Position numbers and translations under genes: made by a program. From IMG/VR virus record IMGVR_UViG_3300042511_000273, positions 1-40,879 of that record: a DNA stretch of 40,879 nucleotides; one strand, written 5' to 3'. The DNA is from a virus. The notes beneath the pieces are model-generated. The model searched no databases, had not been told where the DNA came from, and saw only the letters and a program-made list of their open reading frames with translations. Of this stretch, positions 1,165 to 40,500 are shown piece after piece (within the stretch, counting starts at the first letter, position 1; every line of letters starts with the position of its first letter).

Positions 1165-4182
<3,018 letters not shown>

Positions 4183-4186
<4 letters not shown>

Positions 4187-11317: not shown

Positions 11318-11850
11318 AACGAATAATTGATGTTGGGTGTGGTCCAGCAATCTATGTGAAAGCACTGCGAGATTGTGGATTTATTGTGGATGGCATTGAC
11401 CCTGATCCATTGTGTCCCGAAAAGGTTGTAAGCATGTTTGATTACTCTGTTGAGGAAAGATATGACATGGCACTTTGCTTGGAGGTTGCGGAACATATCG
11501 ACCCATATGAAGCGGATTATGTGGTTGATAAGCTGATAGAATTAGCTCCAGTCATTATGTTTTCTGCGGCACTTCCAGGGCAAGGTGGTCATGGGCATAT
11601 CAACTGCCAGCCAAAAGAATACTGGGAGCATAAATTTGGATGCAAAAATTATGTTCTCGATAAAGAATTGACTGAGAAATTCCGTGACTTCATGCGTCAA
11701 GGATACCACATGGGATGGTTGCTCAATAACATTCAGATATTCCGTGCATATGGTAGTGTGTGCTATGAGTCCATAATAAAAGAAGAGACTCCACAGGCTA
11801 TTCGTGTGGCAGAGTGGGTGAGCAAAAATATAAATCAGCTATGCAAGTAA
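11314..11850 (+). CDS. Class I SAM-dependent methyltransferase
   Basis: Encodes 178 residues; starts by ATGA overlap with the glycosyltransferase. RIIDVGCGPAIYVKALRDCG is motif I (SAM-binding D-x-G-x-G), VDGIDPDP ends strand β2 with an acidic ribose ligand, and MALCLEVAEHIDPYEAD is motif IV. GHGHINCQPKEYWEHKFG is seen in small methyltransferases linked to sugar or lipid modification. No DNA target-recognition domain or catalytic (D/N)PPY is present, so a DNA base substrate is unlikely; a sugar is plausible next to the GT4 enzyme. The ThyX start lies inside its 3' end. Confidence 0.8.
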   Translation: MKRIIDVGCGPAIYVKALRDCGFIVDGIDPDPLCPEKVVSMFDYSVEERYDMALCLEVAEHIDPYEADYVVDKLIELAPVIMFSAALPGQGGHGHINCQPKEYWEHKFGCKNYVLDKELTEKFRDFMRQGYHMGWLLNNIQIFRAYGSVCYESIIKEETPQAIRVAEWVSKNINQLCK

Positions 11851-13499
11851 AACTGATAAGCGTCACCAAACCCTGTGTAGAAGGAATCAACACGGCAGAG
11901 GAACTTGTCGCATATTGTGCGAGAGTTTCAAATCCAAGTAACCAATTAAATACTTCAACATCATCAAAGTTGTTGAGGTATTGCGCCGACCACCATCATT
12001 GGTCAATCTTTGAGATGGTAAATATGTGCTGTGAGATTAAGACAAGTAGAGCTATAGCCGCACAGATTCTACGCCACAGGTCATTTTCATTTCAAGAATT
12101 CTGTATATCTGGAGACTCTTTAATTACTGTAATTTTACCAAAAAATAAAAAACCATATTACATACCCATTAAAAAACTATTTGATCGTCAAAATTGGAAA
12201 TCTTATAAAAATATATTAGTTAGAACATTTGATGAAAAAACTAAAACATTTAAATTTTCTAAAATAAAAGAAGTATTTAATACTGGGAAAAAATCAGTTT
12301 ATGAATTGACTTTACACGATGGGAAAAAAATTAAATGCACAAAAGAACATAAATTTTATACTGAAAATGGATTTGATACATTAGAAAATATAGTAGGATT
12401 AAATTCTAAATATCACTCAATGTCTAAGATTGCTTATATTGGAGTTAATGGAATACCTGTATATCAATCATATGATTGGTTAAAAACAGCTAAATTAGAA
12501 TCAATTCAAAATAAAATTGGTTTAAAATATATAGCTGAAAAAGCGGGATGTTCTTATTACACTATAAGAAAATGGTTAAAAATTAATAATTTATCTTTTT
12601 CTAAAAAAGAAGTCTCTAGTTATACAGAACCTTGGAACAAAAATAAATTTGGTTATAAAACATCATTGATTGTTTCTGAAAAACATAAGGATGCTATAAG
12701 AAAAGCAAGAAGCGGATCAAAATCTAATTGGTGGAAAGGTGGATGTGATAGATCTGATAGACTTAAAATATGTGATTGGTGTAATTCTATACGTTCAAAA
12801 AAATTAAAAGATTATAATTATTCATGTTCATTATGTTTATCTAATAACAAATTAGAATTAGATCATATTATTCCAGTTTGGAAGAATAAAGAATTATCAT
12901 ATGATTATAATAATATTCAGGTTTTATGTTCATCATGCCATGATAAAAAACATTCACTTGAGGGTGACGCAAAAGTATTTAGGCAATTACATAATGGAAA
13001 TAAATTAACTGTAAAATTCACTAAAGTAAAAAAAATTAATTTTATAGGATATGAAGAAACATTTGATTTAGAGGTTGATGACATTAACCATAACTATGTA
13101 GCAAACAAAATTTTAGTACATAACTCGCAAAGGTACTCATCGGTAACTGAACTTGAGCCAATCGAATTGCGTAGGCAGGGTAAAACAAATCGTCAGGTCG
13201 GTGATGGAGACTTTGATTTAGCTCCAGAGGATCGAGCATGGATGTACCAACTGCAACATGAGTCACAATTGTTGTACAATAAACTAATAGATTCTGGTGT
13301 TGCCCGTGAATCGGCAAGGTTTATCCTTCCTCTCAACACGCAGACTACCTTGTATATGTCTGGAACTATTCGATCATGGATAACCTACCTACAGCTTCGC
13401 AGTAATGAAGACACACAGAAGGAACACAGAGACATTGCTGAAGCATTGAAGGTGATATTCAAAAATGAATTTCCAGCTATCTACGATGCTTTATTTTGA
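11841..13499 (+). CDS. thyX: Flavin-dependent thymidylate synthase ThyX, interrupted by an intein
   Basis: The precursor is 552 residues from the ATG at 11841 (the frame opens at a GTG at 11814). After removal of a 341-residue intein (residues 88-428) the mature enzyme is about 211 residues, normal for ThyX. The join rebuilds the ThyX signature exactly: RHRSFSFQEF plus SQRYS gives RHR-x2-S-x4-S-x-RY. The N-extein has CARVSNPSN and HHWSIFEM; the C-extein has ESARFILPLNTQTTLYMSGT and the SWITYLQLR region. ThyX makes dTMP from dUMP using methylene-tetrahydrofolate, FAD and NADPH. The enzyme should be inactive until splicing. It overlaps the methyltransferase by 10 bases. Confidence 0.92.
   Translation: MQVKLISVTKPCVEGINTAEELVAYCARVSNPSNQLNTSTSSKLLRYCADHHHWSIFEMVNMCCEIKTSRAIAAQILRHRSFSFQEFCISGDSLITVILPKNKKPYYIPIKKLFDRQNWKSYKNILVRTFDEKTKTFKFSKIKEVFNTGKKSVYELTLHDGKKIKCTKEHKFYTENGFDTLENIVGLNSKYHSMSKIAYIGVNGIPVYQSYDWLKTAKLESIQNKIGLKYIAEKAGCSYYTIRKWLKINNLSFSKKEVSSYTEPWNKNKFGYKTSLIVSEKHKDAIRKARSGSKSNWWKGGCDRSDRLKICDWCNSIRSKKLKDYNYSCSLCLSNNKLELDHIIPVWKNKELSYDYNNIQVLCSSCHDKKHSLEGDAKVFRQLHNGNKLTVKFTKVKKINFIGYEETFDLEVDDINHNYVANKILVHNSQRYSSVTELEPIELRRQGKTNRQVGDGDFDLAPEDRAWMYQLQHESQLLYNKLIDSGVARESARFILPLNTQTTLYMSGTIRSWITYLQLRSNEDTQKEHRDIAEALKVIFKNEFPAIYDALF
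12102..13124 (+). mobile_element. HNH homing-endonuclease intein inside the ThyX active-site motif
   Basis: The 341-residue insert begins with Cys1 (CISGDSLITV, block A), has a block B with CTKEHKFY, and ends in block F/G (ETFDLEVDDINHNYVANKIL then VHN) before a +1 Ser, so all class 1 splicing residues are present (Cys1, block-B His, penultimate His, terminal Asn, +1 Ser). The central part holds a helix-turn-helix (YIAEKAGCSYYTIRKWLK), a NUMOD-like basic stretch with NWWKGG, and an HNH nuclease (CDWCNS...CSLCLS, LELDHIIPVW, VLCSSCHDKKH) near insert residues 224-280. It is much more AT-rich than the flanking thyX exteins, a sign of recent mobility. The endonuclease looks intact. Confidence 0.93.
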
Positions 13500-17942: not shown

Positions 17943-18429
17943 AAAAACCTACGAGGATTTAACGAACAAACAGAAAAACTACGCACTCAATCGGGTGCGT
18001 GGTATGTCGTTGTCTCAAAGCTACCTTAAAGCAGGGTATACGCAGGTAGAAACCAAGTATGCGTCAATCCGTGGTGCTAAAATAGAACAAAGACCACACG
18101 TTAAGGAGTACATCAAACATTTGCGTGAGTCTGAGTGGGTTCAGAATGTTTTAACAATAGCAGAAAAGCGTTCGATGCTTGCTGATTTGGCAAGGGTAAA
18201 GCCAAATGAAGTAACAGAAGAGAGTCAATTTGCATCTATCTCCATTGACGCAGAGGGTAACAGGAGCATTCAAGGGCCAAAGATTTCCGACAAGCTCAAA
18301 GCGATTGAGCTAGACGCTAAGATCGCAGGGGAGTTACGTGAGTCCGACGATAAGAATCAAGTTCTAATCCAACTTATCGACGATAGATTGACCATTGATT
18401 CTCCGAAGCAAAGCCTATTGGAACAATGA
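17929..18429 (+). CDS. terS: Terminase small subunit (Terminase_2-like)
   Basis: Encodes 166 residues. YEDLTNKQKNYALNRVRGMS, then LSQSYLKAGYTQVETKYASI is the N-terminal helix-turn-helix of the Terminase_2 family (LT.kQ..F......g.s...A...AGY). A central helical region (SEWVQNVLTIAEKRSMLADL) is the oligomerisation core, followed by SDKLKAIELDAKIAGELRE. It would recognise the packaging site and recruit the large terminase, which is not in this window although it usually follows immediately. Confidence 0.82.
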   Translation: MAAHRKTYEDLTNKQKNYALNRVRGMSLSQSYLKAGYTQVETKYASIRGAKIEQRPHVKEYIKHLRESEWVQNVLTIAEKRSMLADLARVKPNEVTEESQFASISIDAEGNRSIQGPKISDKLKAIELDAKIAGELRESDDKNQVLIQLIDDRLTIDSPKQSLLEQ

Positions 18430-18971
18430 ACTACACAAAAATTGGCGCATTACAAACTCACCGATACATTTGGATAGATAGCGAATACACCCACGAAAAT
18501 CCAATCGGACCAGTAGAGGCAATGTGGGTTGGGATTACATCAATACCATCGAGGGTATGGGGGATCAATGTTATCTTGAGGGATGGAGGAGCTTTGTATC
18601 GGAACGTCCCTCCTCATGCGATTCGATTCCAAAAGGAATCAATTAACTGGAGCGCACAAGATTCGCAGCTTTGGAATTGCTACTCGTATAACTTTGCAAT
18701 CTTGCAGAACCACATTCTTGCTGGCTTGCCTGTTACAACAAAAATAAAAGACAAGATATTTTCTGGAACATATTTATTTTCAACAACCCATCTACACGAT
18801 GGTTGGTCTGACTCTCCAGAGCAAGATAAAGAGTTTATATTTATCCAGTTGTCGAATGGCAGGTTGACTATTCAGCCGACCAACAGGGTTGCATTCATTG
18901 ACTTGTCGTTTACCAATAGCAATCTTCCCAAACTAAAACTGCATGATACGATATACTCATGCGAACAATAA
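18426..18971 (+). CDS. Hypothetical phage protein, 181 aa
   Basis: Starts by ATGA overlap with the small terminase. It is beta-rich (HRYIWIDSEYTHENPIGPVE, AMWVGITSIPSRVWGINVIL, then RDGGALYRNVPPHAIRF). I recall similar uncharacterised proteins near phage terminases but cannot name a family. No catalytic motif is visible. It is the last gene before a terminator. Confidence 0.65.
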   Translation: MNYTKIGALQTHRYIWIDSEYTHENPIGPVEAMWVGITSIPSRVWGINVILRDGGALYRNVPPHAIRFQKESINWSAQDSQLWNCYSYNFAILQNHILAGLPVTTKIKDKIFSGTYLFSTTHLHDGWSDSPEQDKEFIFIQLSNGRLTIQPTNRVAFIDLSFTNSNLPKLKLHDTIYSCEQ

Positions 18972-24264: not shown

Positions 24265-24274
24265 ACAATAACGT

Positions 24275-24322
24275 GACCAACCGACTGACCAACCGACTGA
24301 CCAACCGACTGACCAACCGACT
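24275..24322. repeat. Four perfect tandem copies of GACCAACCGACT
   Basis: Four uninterrupted 12-base units, followed by two GACT units, leading directly into the GATG microsatellite. The strand is C/A-rich and then switches to G-rich, giving strong local strand asymmetry. Confidence 0.85.
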
Positions 24323-24331
24323 GACTGACTA

Positions 24332-24385
24332 GATGGATGGATGGATGGATGGATGGATGGATGGATGGATGGATGGATGGATGGA
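24332..24385. repeat. GATG tetranucleotide microsatellite, 13 copies
   Basis: Thirteen perfect GATG units from 24332 to 24383. Not in a credible gene: the frame through it reads MDGW repeats then low-complexity. Such tracts are rare in phages and expand or contract by slippage. Confidence 0.9.
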
Positions 24386-24433
24386 CAGCGTAGAGCGGGG
24401 AGCGGGGCGGAGTGGTAACATGGCAGAATCGGC

Positions 24434-24971: not shown

Positions 24972-25016
24972 TAAGCTATACGCATGATTCTTTGTAAGTC
25001 GTTGATTTAAGAAAAG

Positions 25017-25089
25017 TGGGGGTGGACGGATTTGAACCGACAACCAATCAGTTATGAGCCGACTGCTCTGACCATTGAGCTACACCCCC
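25017..25089 (-). tRNA. tRNA-Met (CAT); tRNA-Ile2 possible
   Basis: 73 bases. The acceptor stem GGGGGTG/CACCCCC is perfect and the discriminator is A. The D arm is GCTC/GAGC with loop AATGGTCA, the anticodon loop is CTCATAA (anticodon CAT), the variable loop has 5 bases, and the T loop is TTCAAAT with one T-T mismatch in the T stem. CCA is not encoded. CAT could also be a lysidine-modified isoleucine tRNA reading AUA, which would suit an AT-rich phage. Confidence 0.9.
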
Positions 25090-25093
25090 GAAG

Positions 25094-25176
25094 TTGGCAA
25101 TGCGGGAGTTGAACCCGCACATCATTACTGATAGGAGATTTTAAGTCTCCTGCGTCTGCCGTTTCGCCAATTGCCA
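25094..25176 (-). tRNA. tRNA-Leu (TAA)
   Basis: 83 bases with the long variable arm of a class II tRNA. The acceptor stem is TGGCAAT/ATTGCCA, the anticodon stem-loop GGAGA-CTTAAAA-TCTCC gives anticodon TAA, and the T arm is TGCGGGTTCAACTCCCGCA. CCA is not encoded. It lies 4 bases upstream of the tRNA-Met gene, so the two are probably co-transcribed. It reads UUA, a frequent codon in this AT-rich genome. Confidence 0.92.
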
Positions 25177-30546: not shown

Positions 30547-30900
30547 ATGAAAAATATACAATACTCTTATGATAAGCTTTTAGAAGAACAAGAAAAGCAA
30601 AACAAACAAACCCCAAATGGGACATGGATTGAAAATAAAGCTACTTACGATCCCCAAGGTCAACCTGGTGAAAAAAAATCAAAATATATACCAAGAGGAA
30701 ATGTGCCAGGTGATCCTCTTGCTGGCGTAAGGGGAGCGGAGCAAAGAGTAAATGGTGCAATCCAACAGTTTGGTAGACGTTCAGAAGAAGCTGAAAAGGC
30801 TTATGCAGGTTATAAAATGAGTCGGGAAGAGTTTGAAAAAAAACAAAAAGATGAGTTGAAAACCAAAGGAATTAGAACAAATTACGGACAGATGTTATAA
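30547..30900 (+). CDS. Hypothetical protein, 117 aa
   Basis: SYDKLLEEQEKQNKQTPNGT, then a Pro/Gly-rich middle (YDPQGQPGEKKSKYIPRGNV, then PGDPLAGVRGAEQRVNG) and a charged helix. It converges on the dCMP deaminase with a 6-base overlap of the 3' ends, so there is no room for a terminator. Function unknown. Confidence 0.6.
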   Translation: MKNIQYSYDKLLEEQEKQNKQTPNGTWIENKATYDPQGQPGEKKSKYIPRGNVPGDPLAGVRGAEQRVNGAIQQFGRRSEEAEKAYAGYKMSREEFEKKQKDELKTKGIRTNYGQML

Positions 30901-31284
30901 TTTAATTAGTGTAATCCCAAAATCACTAGCAACTTCTAACGCTATTGTATCGTTTAAGTATACTTCCTTGTAGTATACTTTCTTTATTCCATATCCTGCA
31001 AATGCACGAAGGCAATCTCTACATGGGAGAAGTGTACATGCAGCCATGTAACACTCGTTTGGTCTAACGTATCTCAATGCATTTTGTTCTGCATGGACAA
31101 CGTAAATTCTACGCCTTTCTCTGCATGACCAATCTTCTTTCATTCCTTGCGGGAATCCATTGTATCCCACAGATGCGATTGAATTATCGTGACGAAGTAG
31201 AACCGCTCCTACTTTCTTCCACGGATCTTTAGATTTCAACGAAACAGCTTCAGCTATATTCATTGCGTATTTATGCCATGTCAT
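30895..31284 (-). CDS. Deoxycytidylate (dCMP) deaminase
   Basis: Encodes 129 residues from the ATG at 31284, which has AAGGAT upstream; the frame opens at 31335. The cytidine/deoxycytidylate deaminase zinc site is complete: VVHAEQNALRYV (H-A-E) and LLPCRDCLRAFAGYGIKKVY (P-C-x-x-C). SVGYNGFPQGM is the substrate-loop motif of the dCMP deaminase family. It makes dUMP from dCMP, feeding ThyX. It stands alone on the minus strand, with a long structured leader-like region upstream (31285-31655). Confidence 0.9.
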   Translation of the reverse strand: MTWHKYAMNIAEAVSLKSKDPWKKVGAVLLRHDNSIASVGYNGFPQGMKEDWSCRERRRIYVVHAEQNALRYVRPNECYMAACTLLPCRDCLRAFAGYGIKKVYYKEVYLNDTIALEVASDFGITLIKL

Positions 31285-31321
31285 TATCAATATCCTTATT
31301 TGGTGGTGAGTTTGGTGCATA

Positions 31322-31632
31322 GCAGTTCCTACCAAAAGAAACTGCTAAAATCATACCTCCTTGTTCGTATGGAGCCGTTCGTATGCTTTTATGAATCACT
31401 CAGCCAGAGGTCGTCCTTATCCTAGCTTTACTTAGTTTACACCTTTCGGTGAGAGTCAGTCTGATTCGCAATCTCCTTCCTTTCGGAAGGAGCGTATTAA
31501 GTTGGTAGTCTATTAACCCTTCCAACACCTCTCCTTCACACGGGAGTCCTTTACAGGTTTGTTCCATAGTCAGGGGATAGAACCCTGCCGTGCTACACTC
31601 ATCTTATTTTACAGGCTCATTTCGGGAACTGC
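31322..31632 (-). ncRNA. Candidate structured RNA upstream of dCMP deaminase (class unknown)
   Basis: About 310 bases with no gene and many helices. The ends pair: GCAGTTCC (31322-31329) with GGAACTGC (31625-31632). Inside are CACC/GGTG (31440-31451) and CTCCTTCC/GGAAGGAG (31473-31492), whose loops read GAAA on the minus strand, the GNRA form typical of folded RNA and the main reason for choosing that strand. Other helices are CAGGG/CCCTG (31571-31587), GTTGG/CCAAC (31501-31526) and GCTAC/GTAGC (31592-31638). AGCAGTT/AACTGCT (31321-31346) competes with the end-closing helix, as in a switch. The segment is less AT-rich than its surroundings. I could not match it to group I, group II, RNase P or tmRNA cores. 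Plus-strand orientation is not excluded, because a terminator follows on that side. Confidence 0.55.
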
Positions 31633-31655
31633 CGTAGCTTCATGCGAAAGAAAAA

Positions 31656-31692
31656 CCCGCCTTGATATTCACAGTATCAAGACGGGATTTTT
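31656..31692. terminator. Intrinsic terminator, bidirectional
   Basis: CCCGCCTTGATA (31656-31667) pairs with TATCAAGACGGG (31675-31686), 12 bp with one C-A mismatch and a 7-base loop, followed by ATTTTT on the plus strand and preceded by AAAAA, giving TTTTT on the minus strand. It ends any plus-strand RNA across the structured region and shields the genes starting at 31808. Confidence 0.85.
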
Positions 31693-31771
31693 GCGGGGAA
31701 AAATGTATCTGAATTCTGTGAAAATTCAATTAAGATGAATTTAAATTATCAGCACTAAACAAAATGTCAAC

Positions 31772-31800
31772 TTGATTTTTTTTAAAAATTGTTTAACAAT
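31772..31800 (+). promoter_or_regulatory. Predicted promoter with overlapping operator palindrome
   Basis: TTGATT (31772-31777), 17 bases, AACAAT (31795-31800). The palindrome ATTGTTTAACAAT (31788-31800) covers the -10 and is identical, in the other orientation, to the site at 20904-20916. The ATG at 31808 is 7 bases after the -10, so the transcript would be leaderless. Confidence 0.45.
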
Positions 31801-31807
31801 AACTGCG

Positions 31808-31999
31808 ATGAACAAAACACAAAGCTCTGAACAAGCTATGAAACGTAAACTCAGCGAGTGCATGGCATCTCTATCCAAGTGGTGCTTCAATCGCGCAAGT
31901 GGGAACTACAATCCAGAAACTACAATGATAATGCTGGCACACAAAGTTGTTGAGATGACAGATCGAATTGATCGGGCTGGAAAGACTAGATATAAATGA
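31808..31999 (+). CDS. Hypothetical protein, 63 aa
   Basis: The ATG at 31808 fits the promoter; the frame opens earlier. MNKTQSSEQAMKRKLSECMA, then SLSKWCFNRASGNYNPETTM and a C-terminal helix. It is coupled by ATGA overlap to the GT9-like gene. No family recognised. Confidence 0.55.
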   Translation: MNKTQSSEQAMKRKLSECMASLSKWCFNRASGNYNPETTMIMLAHKVVEMTDRIDRAGKTRYK

Positions 32000-32862
32000 A
32001 CGCATTTCATTCAGGCTGCATAGGAGACATTATATATTCAATTCCAACGCTACACAAACTTGGTGTAGAGTCCCTGTTTATTGCAGATAGACCATGGACA
32101 AAACCAATCGTCAATAGAATCGGTGCATTTGATAGGATACTTGAGAGTCAAGGGATAAAGGTTAGAGAGCATAAAGGAGAGAATATTGACTATGATCTAT
32201 CTACTTACCGCAGTGCGGGTCACAAGTACGGGGAAACTATTGTATCAAAGATAGCTAGATGGGTTAACGTCCACTTAGATATGTCGGAAAAAAGTATACG
32301 TATTTCCGACAAAACTCCTTATACAAAAGGAAAGATTGTTTTAGGTAGATGCCCTAGATGGCATGGTGAAAACTTTCCTTGGAGAGAGATTGTTGAACAA
32401 TACGGGAGCGACATTGTTTTCATTGGACTGCCTGAAGAACACAAGGAATTCACCCGTGAATTTGGGAGCGTGGATTATTATCACACAATAGACCTGTATG
32501 ACGTTGCTGAAGCTATTAATGGGTGCGACATCTACTTTGGAAATCAAAGCTCCCCAATGGCTATTTGCGAAGGATTAAAGCATGACTGTGTACAAGAATG
32601 TTGTCTATACGCTTTTGACTGCGTTTATCACAGAGGAAATAAAGTTCATGTTATAGATGGAAACTTTACGTTCACGCATAAAGGAAGGTTGTTTGATTAT
32701 AAAATTGAAACACCAAAACATGGATATAAAATAACTGTTAATGGTTATGACTTCCATTCAAGAGATAAAGATGTATGTGTAACAATAGCACGGGCATACT
32801 TGACTATGAATAATATACAATGTAATGTTGATTCATTACATGAATTAGTTAAATCATATTAA
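31996..32862 (+). CDS. Glycosyltransferase, GT9/heptosyltransferase-like
   Basis: Encodes 288 residues. FHSGCIGDIIYSIPTLHKLG is the N-terminal GDxxxxxPxLxxL motif of GT9 enzymes, GKIVLGRCPRWHGENFPW opens the donor domain, and YDVAEAINGCDIYFGNQSSP, then MAICEGLKH is the C-terminal nucleotide-sugar site. Phage homologues are often called capsid or host-surface modifying glycosyltransferases. It sits at the head of a virion-gene block, so a virion or host-surface glycan target is plausible. The last 30-40 residues are AT-rich and lower complexity. Confidence 0.72.
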   Translation: MNAFHSGCIGDIIYSIPTLHKLGVESLFIADRPWTKPIVNRIGAFDRILESQGIKVREHKGENIDYDLSTYRSAGHKYGETIVSKIARWVNVHLDMSEKSIRISDKTPYTKGKIVLGRCPRWHGENFPWREIVEQYGSDIVFIGLPEEHKEFTREFGSVDYYHTIDLYDVAEAINGCDIYFGNQSSPMAICEGLKHDCVQECCLYAFDCVYHRGNKVHVIDGNFTFTHKGRLFDYKIETPKHGYKITVNGYDFHSRDKDVCVTIARAYLTMNNIQCNVDSLHELVKSY

Positions 32863-37518: not shown

Positions 37519-40500
37519 ATGGCTACTTTTACACAAACACCTGGACGAATTGATATTGAAGCGACAGTTGGTTCTGAATTTGCAACTAACTTAAATTTCA
37601 ATGCAAATATATCTACAGCTACATTTGATGCTGCTATTATAATTCAAGAATATCCATCTGTTATTGAAGTTCCAATGACAGTAACAGTTCTTGGAACTCA
37701 AAGTATAGCCCTTTCAATGTCTGCAACACAGACGCAAAATATTGGAGCTATATCTAATAAGAAGTGGTATTTAAAATGGACATACTCTTCAATAACTCAA
37801 ACAATATTAAGTGGCAGGATTCAGCTATCAGTTGTCCCCATCAATGTAAATGTTCCTAATAATGTTAATGCAATTATTGAGAATTTTGATATTAATGTAA
37901 CAGTACCTTATGTTTCTGCTATTGGGGCTACAGGTTCCACTGGCTCAGACGGAGCTACTGGTCCTCAAGGGTCTACTGGTTTACAAGGTTCCACAGGAGC
38001 AACTGGAGCAGGGTCTACTGGAGCTACTGGTATTCAAGGAGCAACTGGAGATTTCGGAGCCACAGGACCAACAGGTATTGGATATGATTTTGTGTTTTCA
38101 ACCACTCCAGCAATACCATCTCAACCATCTCCAATACAATTAATTGTTAACGATAGAGGGGCATTCTTTACTGGAATGCGAGTAAGGGCAGTTAATTCAA
38201 GCACAAATTTCTTTGAAGGACTTGTTACAATAACAAGTGATACGATATTTACAATTGATGTAGATTACTTTGTTGGATCAACCGCTGGTTCTTTTTGGAC
38301 AATATCTGTTGCTGGAACAATGGGTACACAAGGATCTACTGGATCTACTGGAGTTCAAGGTGCTACTGGAATAACGGGAAATATAGGTGCTACTGGTTCA
38401 ATTGGTATAACTGGATTGACAGGAGCAACTGGATCTTCTGGAATAGATGGAGCAACTGGTGCTACAGGACCAGAAGGGGCAACTGGATTAGGCGCAACTG
38501 GGGCCACTGGAGTTACTGGATTAACAGGTCAAACAACTACATTTTACAGATATGACGCTGAAGTAACTCAAACATCTGGATTTCCAACTGCTGGATATTT
38601 GTATTGGAATAATTCTACTCAAATAAATTCTACACAAGTAGCATTATCACACACAACGGCATCATCTGAAGATATAGACTTATTGCTTGCACTAATTTCT
38701 GTTGGAAATCAATTTGTTATACAGTCAAAATCTAGTTCTACAAGTTTCCAAAAATGGGAGGTTTCAGGTGCGCCAGTAGTTGTTGCTAATAGTTACATTG
38801 AATTACCAGTAACACTTATTAATAGCGGAGGAAATGGAAGTACTAATTTCTCTCAAGGAGATAATTTAATATTTGTAATTACACAACAAGGAATTCAAGG
38901 AGCTACTGGACTAACTGGAGCAACAGGCATAGGTGCTACTGGGATTCAAGGAGCGACTGGATCACAAGGATCAACTGGAACAGCAGGAACTGGAATAACA
39001 TTAAAGGGAACTGTAGCTAATATTGGAGATTTACCCTCTGTTGGAAATACTGTAGGAGATTTATATATTGTTACAAATTCTAATGGAGATGGATTTGCTT
39101 GGGATGGAATAACTTGGAATAATGTTGGAGCAATTCAAGGACCACAGGGGAGTACGGGTTATACTGGAATTCAAGGTAATGTTGGAGCTACTGGTTTAGT
39201 TGGAGCTACTGGGATTCAGGGTCCACTTGGAGCTACAGGATTAGGAGCTACTGGAGCTACTGGAGCTACTGGAGCAACGGGAGCAACGGGATTAGGCGCA
39301 ACTGGAGCTACTGGAGCTACTGGATTGGGCGCAACTGGAGCTACTGGAGCTACTGGAGCTACTGGATTGGGAGCTACAGGAGCAACTGGTCCAGTTGGTC
39401 CAACCGCTCCACTTTACCAAGCTACATATTACAAGAGTGCAAACCAAAATCTAGTTAACGGATCTACGGATATTACATTTGATCAAGATGCTTCTTGGAA
39501 TAATGCAAATGGATATATTACACACGCATCTGGAGCAGCAAATTTTGTTGTAGTACAATCTGGATTATATCAATTAGAATGGAATGCTTCTGTAAATGCA
39601 AATGGAGCTACATGGAATACTAGCACAAATAAAGTAGTATCCATTGACATTACTCGTTCTCCTATTTCTGAACAAGTTGTAATTGGTCAAACCGCAGTCG
39701 CGGCTACAACTCAAAGTTATACGCAAAATGTTGTTTCTACTTTTAATCTTGAAGCTGGCGATATAATAAATCTTCGTCATTTTGGGAACTTCGCAACAGC
39801 CACTCCATTTGCTCAAGGAGTTCAAAATACAATTGATCTTAATACTTGGTTTTCTTGGAGGTATGTTTCAAGTGGACCAATTGGAGCAACTGGAATTCAA
39901 GGGGCGACTGGACCAAGTGGTGGTGCAACTGGCTCGACTGGCTCGACTGGATCTACTGGGTCTACTGGGTCTACTGGGTCTACTGGCTCCACTGGACCAG
40001 CAGGAGCAACTGGAGCGGGAGCAACTGGGATTCAAGGCGCAACAGGAATTGGCGCACTAGGTTCTACTGGGGCAACTGGGGTTTCAGGGGTTTCCCCTTG
40101 GTCTTTAAATGGCAGTACTGTTTATTACAATGCTGGCAATGTTGGAATAGGTGAATCTAATCCTGCTCAAAAATTAGTTGTTAATGGGGATATTCTTTCA
40201 ATAACTGATTCTACATTTAACGGAATTCGTGTTGGTAAAGGAGGAGGTAATAGTGCAAACAACACTACAGTTGGAGCCCTTGCGTTTAGTGGCAATTTAA
40301 CAGGAACTGGAAATGTTGCTGTTGGAACATATTCTTTGCTAGTTTCTAATTCAAATTATAACACAGGAATTGGATCGCAAGCTGGAACTAATAATACTAG
40401 CGGAACTAATGGAACATTTGTAGGTGCTGTTTGTGGAGCATCAAATTCCATAGGAAACAAAAACACATTTGTTGGATCACTCGCAGGATTACTTAATACA

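What the first reader, a model, noticed from the sequence alone, without database searches (positions are those of the whole stretch)
31285..31655. Unclassified structured RNA upstream of dCMP deaminase
Within a gene-free segment at least six helices can be drawn, closed end to end by GCAGTTCC/GGAACTGC about 300 bases apart. Two hairpins have GAAA loops on the minus strand. The 3' closing strand can instead pair locally (31321-31346), a mutually exclusive choice as in riboswitches. It is upstream of a nucleotide-metabolism gene and less AT-rich than its surroundings. A new riboswitch, ribozyme or phage noncoding RNA is possible.
Basis: partly seen in the sequence, partly recalled or inferred. 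Interest (0 to 1): 0.78.

Follow-up and report, generated by a model that had tools for sequence, protein, structure and literature searches.

The report
Uncatalogued structured phage noncoding RNA
The window carries a gene for a roughly 450-base folded RNA of unknown function, with its own promoter, that is absent from the RNA family library, recurs in about 20 related aquatic phage contigs, and has a second form with a completely different body in the same genomic places.

Summary
Twenty IMG/VR contigs carry it. The covarying structure has 91 pairs, 96% formed against at most 70% in phylogeny-aware nulls, and 36 pairs with compensatory changes. A promoter lies at a fixed distance upstream in 32 of 33 leaders. 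The first 140 nt fold into a domain whose two hairpin loops kiss through 5-9 bp that change together across phages. The same 5' domain is joined in 19 contigs to an unrelated structured body (type 2), in the same genomic settings; one contig carries type 1 at one end and type 2 at the other. The next gene is convergent in about 15 loci, which excludes a leader of one fixed gene. Rfam has no match. Most likely it is an autonomous trans-acting structured RNA, comparable in kind with GOLLD and ROOL but not a member. Unexplained: an internal ~15-nt segment recurs at the RNA's own 3' edge and changes with it in both types.

The parts
31745..31770 (-). sigma-70-like promoter: TTGACA (31770-31765) and GATAAT (31750-31745), ending 7 nt before the first base of the RNA
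   Evidence: TTGAC found 33-34 nt upstream of the CATC start in 32 of 33 distinct leaders, with a -10-like hexamer at a near-fixed place, although the spacer is not conserved. The generic scan did not flag this site.
31280..31737 (-). the whole noncoding RNA (type 1), inferred 5' end about 31737, 3' edge about 31280
   Evidence: alignment of 20 sequences A1; 5' end inferred from promoter plus helix P1; 3' edge inferred from loss of similarity and from the convergent genes that end there in relatives
31601..31737 (-). 5' domain shared by type 1 and type 2 RNAs, closed by P1 (31736-31731 with 31606-31601)
   Evidence: 37-sequence alignment A2, 91% of cells paired against 38-50% in slid controls; type 2 profile matches type 1 RNAs only over positions 1-141, best E 1e-37
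31711..31727 (-). hairpin P2; its loop TTCACAG (31722-31716) kisses the loop of P3
   Evidence: loop-loop complementarity mean 6.87 bp against 3.99 when partners are permuted, maximum 4.63 in 2000; 7 of 7 pairs with compensatory changes
31656..31686 (-). hairpin P3 with loop CTGTGAA (31674-31668), followed by TTTTTC; looks like a terminator but appears structural: the divergent L085, L091 and L095 keep the hairpin without the T tract
   Evidence: scan lists it as terminator-like
31620..31649 (-). helix P4 (31649-31645 with 31624-31620) that encloses the conserved GGCAGTTCCC
   Evidence: 96% of cells paired, 4 of 6 pairs compensatory in A2; column pair 137-163 of A1 has 5 pair types and is the one pair significant in an all-pairs test
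31317..31598 (-). type 1 body, closed by P6 (31598-31594 with 31321-31317)
   Evidence: P6 pairs in all sequences but hardly varies
31571..31587 (-). hairpin P7 with a T-loop-like loop, GGTTCTATCC, as in tRNA
   Evidence: covaries (GC, AU, UA at columns 201-213), loop mostly TTCNATC; the T-loop reading is by eye
31473..31492 (-). hairpin P11, GAAA loop
   Evidence: 6 of 8 pairs compensatory
31393..31467 (-). helix P12 (31467-31462 with 31398-31393) enclosing P13 (GAAA/GCAA loop, 31451-31440) and P14 (31427-31424 with 31405-31402)
   Evidence: P12 4 of 6, P13 2 of 4, P14 2 of 4 pairs compensatory, 100% of cells paired
31408..31530 (-). long-range pseudoknot AGG/CCT (31530-31528 with 31410-31408)
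   Evidence: one A-U to U-A double change, in L090 and L101; weak on its own
31322..31345 (-).
   Evidence: kept in 95% of cells but without compensatory change
31345..31362 (-). repeat X, AAGGAGGTATGATTTTAG, inside the RNA
   Evidence: similarity of X to X' within a phage exceeds every one of 20000 permutations in both RNA types
31280..31297 (-). repeat X', AAGGATATTGATAATGAC, at the 3' edge; here it overlaps the start codon (31284-31282) and probable ribosome binding site of the deaminase
30895..31284 (-). dCMP deaminase gene, neighbour, not part of the RNA
   Evidence: phrog_174, E 2.6e-34

Best explanation
It is an autonomous noncoding RNA gene of a family of aquatic phages (largest contigs 60-70 kb). 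Transcription starts at helix P1 from its own promoter (inferred). The 5' domain folds around a kissing pair of hairpin loops (shown by covariation); the body folds separately behind it (shown by covariation). The product works in trans as a folded RNA, alone or with a protein, rather than as the leader of one gene (inferred from gene context). The same 5' domain can carry another body in the same genomic setting (shown; reason unknown). The most likely mode is a stable RNA scaffold or RNA-only assembly comparable with GOLLD and ROOL, in which kissing loops with phage-specific sequences hold the fold, or hold copies together. That last step is a guess.
For: Two independent motifs scanned over 2.9 million viral contigs hit the same 20 contigs. 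Covariation: type 1, 91 pairs, 96.4% paired, 135 doubly changed cells against a maximum of 59 in 200 phylogeny-aware nulls; shared 5' domain, 137 against a maximum of 77. Kissing loops. Promoter at fixed distance in 32 of 33 leaders. GNRA loops and T-loop on the minus strand. Convergent gene as the next gene in about 15 loci. Both types in the same settings, e.g. L089/L098 against L109 and L097/L099 against L104/L108, and both on contig G001, at 480-507 and 68837-68864. No Rfam family at gathering score.
Against: No transcript data. The number of independent sequences is modest (about 11 clusters at 90% identity for type 1), and an all-pairs covariation test without a given structure had power for only one pair. 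No 3' terminator was found at the 3' edge, so the end is inferred. In the window the RNA is followed directly by the deaminase, so some cis effect there is possible.
Confidence: 0.65

Rival explanations
1. A cis-acting nascent-RNA element: promoter, then a terminator-like hairpin whose loop is captured by the upstream hairpin, so that RNA polymerase reads through into the next genes, as with HK022 put RNA or an attenuator.
For: Promoter, kissing hairpins and GGCGGG-TTTTT lie in that order within about 120 nt. In L010 and L015 the same promoter is followed by a plain terminator without P2 and then by protein genes.
Against: The T tract is missing in L085, L091 and L095 while the hairpin and kissing pair remain. 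In about 15 loci a convergent gene follows, so there is no co-directional gene next to it to read into. It does not explain 300 nt of conserved body.
Confidence: 0.15
2. An RNA that guides its own placement: internal segment X recognises the DNA at the element's 3' edge X' (bridge-RNA-like or intron-like mobility), perhaps with an endonuclease supplied in trans.
For: X and X' change together in both types (0 of 20000 permutations each), no complement of X was found in the RNA, and no clear further copy in the DNA held. Same RNA in several genomic settings. HNH-like proteins follow some type 2 copies (L007/L102/L114).
Against: No recombinase or transposase is known to be tied to the RNA. X' is not a fixed target: it differs between phages that share the rest of the flank. 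No empty site was found. Swapping can be homologous recombination in the shared leader and flanks. Shared descent inflates the permutation result.
Confidence: 0.12
3. A riboswitch for a nucleotide that controls dCMP deaminase.
For: Position in this window directly upstream of the deaminase; SD-like AAGGA in X'.
Against: Different downstream genes, convergent genes, deaminase about 2.5 kb away in L020, switching helix not conserved.
Confidence: 0.03
4. A replication primer RNA in the manner of ColE1 RNA II (recalled from general knowledge).
For: Long structured transcript with kissing loops and an undefined 3' end.
Against: No GC-skew switch at the locus; phages with the same neighbours lack it; no G-rich/C-rich hybrid anchor was noticed.
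Confidence: 0.04

Closest known systems
GOLLD RNA (giant ornate phage/prophage RNA)
   Same: large, elaborately folded phage RNA of unknown function, one conserved and one less conserved part, kissing loops in its class (PMC12286853)
   Different: no Rfam match; about 450 nt against often more than 800; here the 5' part is the constant one and the body differs; not next to a tRNA island in the window (tRNAs are 6 kb away)
ROOL RNA
   Same: large phage/prophage RNA with pseudoknots and quaternary kissing loops (PMC12286853)
   Different: no Rfam match; multimer formation not tested
HK022 put RNA
   Same: phage nascent RNA element close behind a promoter (PMC9378689)
   Different: far larger, followed by convergent genes in many loci, T tract not conserved
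IS110 bridge RNA
   Same: a segment that resembles DNA at the element's edge, as a target-binding loop matches target DNA (compare PMC11208160)
   Different: no IS110 recombinase noticed, larger as far as recalled, X' variable

Membership tests
GOLLD (Rfam) | match to the covariance model | tested here: not met
   no match at gathering score in the window, not among the E<=5 matches in 30600-32600, no match at E<=0.5 in eight homologous loci
GOLLD (Rfam) | often near tRNA islands | tested here: inconclusive
   tRNA-Met and tRNA-Leu at 25016-25176, 6 kb away
ROOL (Rfam) | match to the covariance model | tested here: not met
GOLLD/ROOL | homo-oligomeric RNA-only complex | not testable with these tools
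   needs native gel, mass photometry or cryo-EM
nucleotide riboswitch | conserved position upstream of genes of one pathway | tested here: not met
nucleotide riboswitch | conserved mutually exclusive helices | tested here: not met
nucleotide riboswitch | ligand binding | not testable with these tools
   in-line probing needed
group I or group II intron | match to the Rfam models | tested here: not met
   no match
group I or group II intron | interrupts a gene | tested here: not met
   the RNA is intergenic with its own promoter in the loci examined
processive antitermination element (put) | acts on the polymerase to pass terminators | not testable with these tools
   needs a transcription assay
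processive antitermination element (put) | stands before the genes it controls | tested here: not met
   convergent gene next downstream in about 15 of some 35 loci
IS110 bridge RNA | encoded with an IS110 recombinase | not tested
   neighbouring ORFs were not searched for this family systematically
IS110 bridge RNA | loop segments matching target DNA | tested here: inconclusive
   X resembles X' but X' is not a fixed target

The most novel reading that the evidence does not exclude
A new mobile RNA module of phages with interchangeable folded bodies on a constant kissing-loop domain, in which an internal guide-like segment is matched to the DNA at the element's own 3' edge and takes part in its placement or exchange.
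Probability: 0.12. Interest if true: 0.92.

Novelty: new variant of a known kind. Interest (0 to 1): 0.72.

Why it matters
Large phage RNAs such as GOLLD and ROOL are ornate and functionally unexplained. A further class with a defined promoter, a kissing pair that covaries across nearly all members, and two unrelated bodies in the same settings gives a natural experiment: what stays constant and what is exchanged can be compared in closely related phages. It adds two RNA types to search models, and the matched repeat at the 3' edge is a concrete, testable oddity.

Tried and rejected
Rfam scans (no match; the E 2.2-4 hits are far below their gathering scores). Nucleotide searches in annotated phages for type 1 and type 2 (nothing beyond pieces of about 30 bases). 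The core motif in 84,980 bacterial and archaeal genomes: two hits, both chance matches in unrelated sequence. Pairing of the single-stranded linker between P2 and P3 with X looked good by eye in six phages but failed permutation. A partner for X elsewhere in the RNA: none. Replication origin by GC skew: no sign. Sequence homology of the type 1 and type 2 bodies or 3' domains: none detected, so the resemblance of their 3' ends (hairpin, X, hairpin, X') is architectural only. Four of the ten new hits to the type 2 motif (L123-L126) were chance.

Full report
What is there. The window is a 40,879-base IMG/VR virus record. Between the dCMP deaminase (30895-31284, minus strand; phrog_174) and the next ORF at 31772 there is no ORF of 60 aa or more, and GC is 44% against 33-40% in the neighbouring 400-base bins. 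Further on lies a gene on the plus strand (31996-32862), divergent from the deaminase. Single-sequence folding is only modestly better than shuffles on either strand, so the case rests on comparison.

Homologues. The deaminase protein brought 80 viral loci, of which five (L002-L005 and L020) carry the RNA along its whole length at 82-98% identity, while five others (L007, L009, L018, L026, L027) match only its first ~110 bases. A 19-base core pattern found 20 contigs in IMG/VR, and a second, independent pattern found exactly the same 20. The same core gave only two chance hits in 84,980 prokaryote genomes, and no annotated phage record matched. A glycosyltransferase of the window is 70% identical to that of cyanophage S-CAM7, so a cyanobacterial host is possible, but one gene is thin evidence.

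Strand and limits. In 32 of 33 distinct leaders TTGAC stands 33-34 nt before the CATC that opens the first helix, with a -10-like hexamer near the right place, although the spacer is not conserved. GNRA loops (GAAA exchanged with GCAA in P13; GAAA, GTAA and GGAA in P8) and a T-loop-like TTCNATC loop occur on the minus strand. The RNA is therefore read from the minus strand, starting near 31737. The 3' edge, near 31280, is where similarity ends and where, in many relatives, a convergent gene ends.

Structure. With 20 type 1 sequences, a 91-pair structure with a kissing pair and one long-range pseudoknot has 96.4% of cells paired against 39-46% when the partners are slid, and 36 pairs with changes on both sides against 20.5 in shuffles. 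In nulls that keep the tree and the number of substitutions per branch, the best of 200 gave 70% and 59 doubly changed cells, against 96% and 135 observed. The structure was partly derived from the same sequences, which favours it; I judge the difference larger than that bias would give. An all-pairs test without a given structure reached significance for one pair only, because type 1 has about 11 independent clusters.

The 5' domain. P1 closes it; inside are hairpins P2 and P3 and helix P4. The loops of P2 and P3 are complementary over 5-9 bases in every one of 30 distinct leaders, mean 6.87, while permuted partners give 3.99 and never more than 4.63. All seven pairs of this kiss have compensatory changes. 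P3 looks like a terminator, but the divergent relatives L085, L091 and L095 keep the hairpin and the kiss and lack the T tract, so its constant role is structural.

Two bodies on one domain. Nineteen contigs have the same 5' domain followed by another body. A profile of type 2 matches type 1 RNAs only over its first 141 positions. Type 2 is structured too: 98 predicted pairs, 34 with compensatory changes, 94% of cells paired (no null was run for it). Both types occur in the same settings: L089/L098 (type 1) and L109 (type 2) before one convergent gene, L097/L099 and L104/L108 before another. Of 12 records searched whole with the leader pattern, none has more than one match except G001, which has type 1 at bases 480-507 and type 2 at 68837-68864, both at contig ends, with the same leader and a closely similar flank. 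I read this as one locus with two alleles in the sampled population (inference). In L010, L014 and L015 the place is taken by protein genes behind a plain terminator, so the RNA is accessory.

Why not a riboswitch. The downstream gene is the deaminase here, but elsewhere an HNH-like protein, a glycosyltransferase, an unrelated ORF, or, in about 15 loci, a convergent gene. In L020/L088 the deaminase is about 2.5 kb away.

The repeat at the edge. Behind the hairpin-like CTCCATACG in type 1, or TTCCTATACGGAA in type 2, lies a segment X, and a similar segment X' ends the RNA about 72-75 bases later. L120 has CGGGAGCTATATTAGAA twice. Within a phage X and X' are more alike than in any of 20,000 permutations in each type. 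Relatedness is not removed by that test, so its strength is overstated. X has no complement in the RNA and no clear third copy in the DNA held. I have no convincing mechanism; a guide-like role is the boldest reading, a common outside partner or a by-product of recombination are plainer ones.

Mechanism and class. I commit to an autonomous RNA that acts in trans as a fold, probably an RNA or RNA-protein scaffold in the manner of GOLLD and ROOL, which form multimers stabilised by kissing loops and other contacts (PMC12286853). Shown: homologues, fold, kiss, constant domain with differing bodies, varied neighbours. Inferred: start and end of the transcript, independence from the downstream gene. 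Guessed: scaffold function. It is not a member of GOLLD, ROOL, the introns or any other family in Rfam 15 by covariance search.

Noticed in passing
window 11814-13499: ThyX thymidylate synthase interrupted by an intein with an HNH endonuclease (Pfam Thy1, Intein_splicing, HNH).
   Followed up: partly
window 1196-4186 and about 37950-40090: Long collagen-like Gly-X-Y repeats in tail-fibre-like proteins towards both ends of the record.
   Followed up: no
window 24274-24389: Two adjacent tandem repeats, TGACCAACCGAC and GATG units, about 600 bases from the tRNA pair.
   Followed up: no
window 25016-25176: tRNA-Met(cat) and tRNA-Leu(taa) side by side on the minus strand.
   Followed up: no
L007 2050-2754: HNH-like protein (weak Pfam match) directly behind a type 2 RNA, its ORF overlapping the 3' end of the RNA; another HNH-like ORF (read by eye) lies behind the type 2 RNA of L106/L107.
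   Followed up: partly
L094:2510-2650 and L121:2294-2433: One type 1 and one type 2 RNA share the same variant of the 5' domain in which GGCAGTTCCC is replaced (CAAAAGGCATC follows) while helix P4 can still form: a hint of exchange between the two types inside the 5' domain.
   Followed up: no
L111 9434-9890: A more divergent type 2-like body on the same leader as L102; may be a third body type.
   Followed up: no
window 18426-18971: Ferredoxin-like auxiliary metabolic gene (phrog_3704).
   Followed up: no
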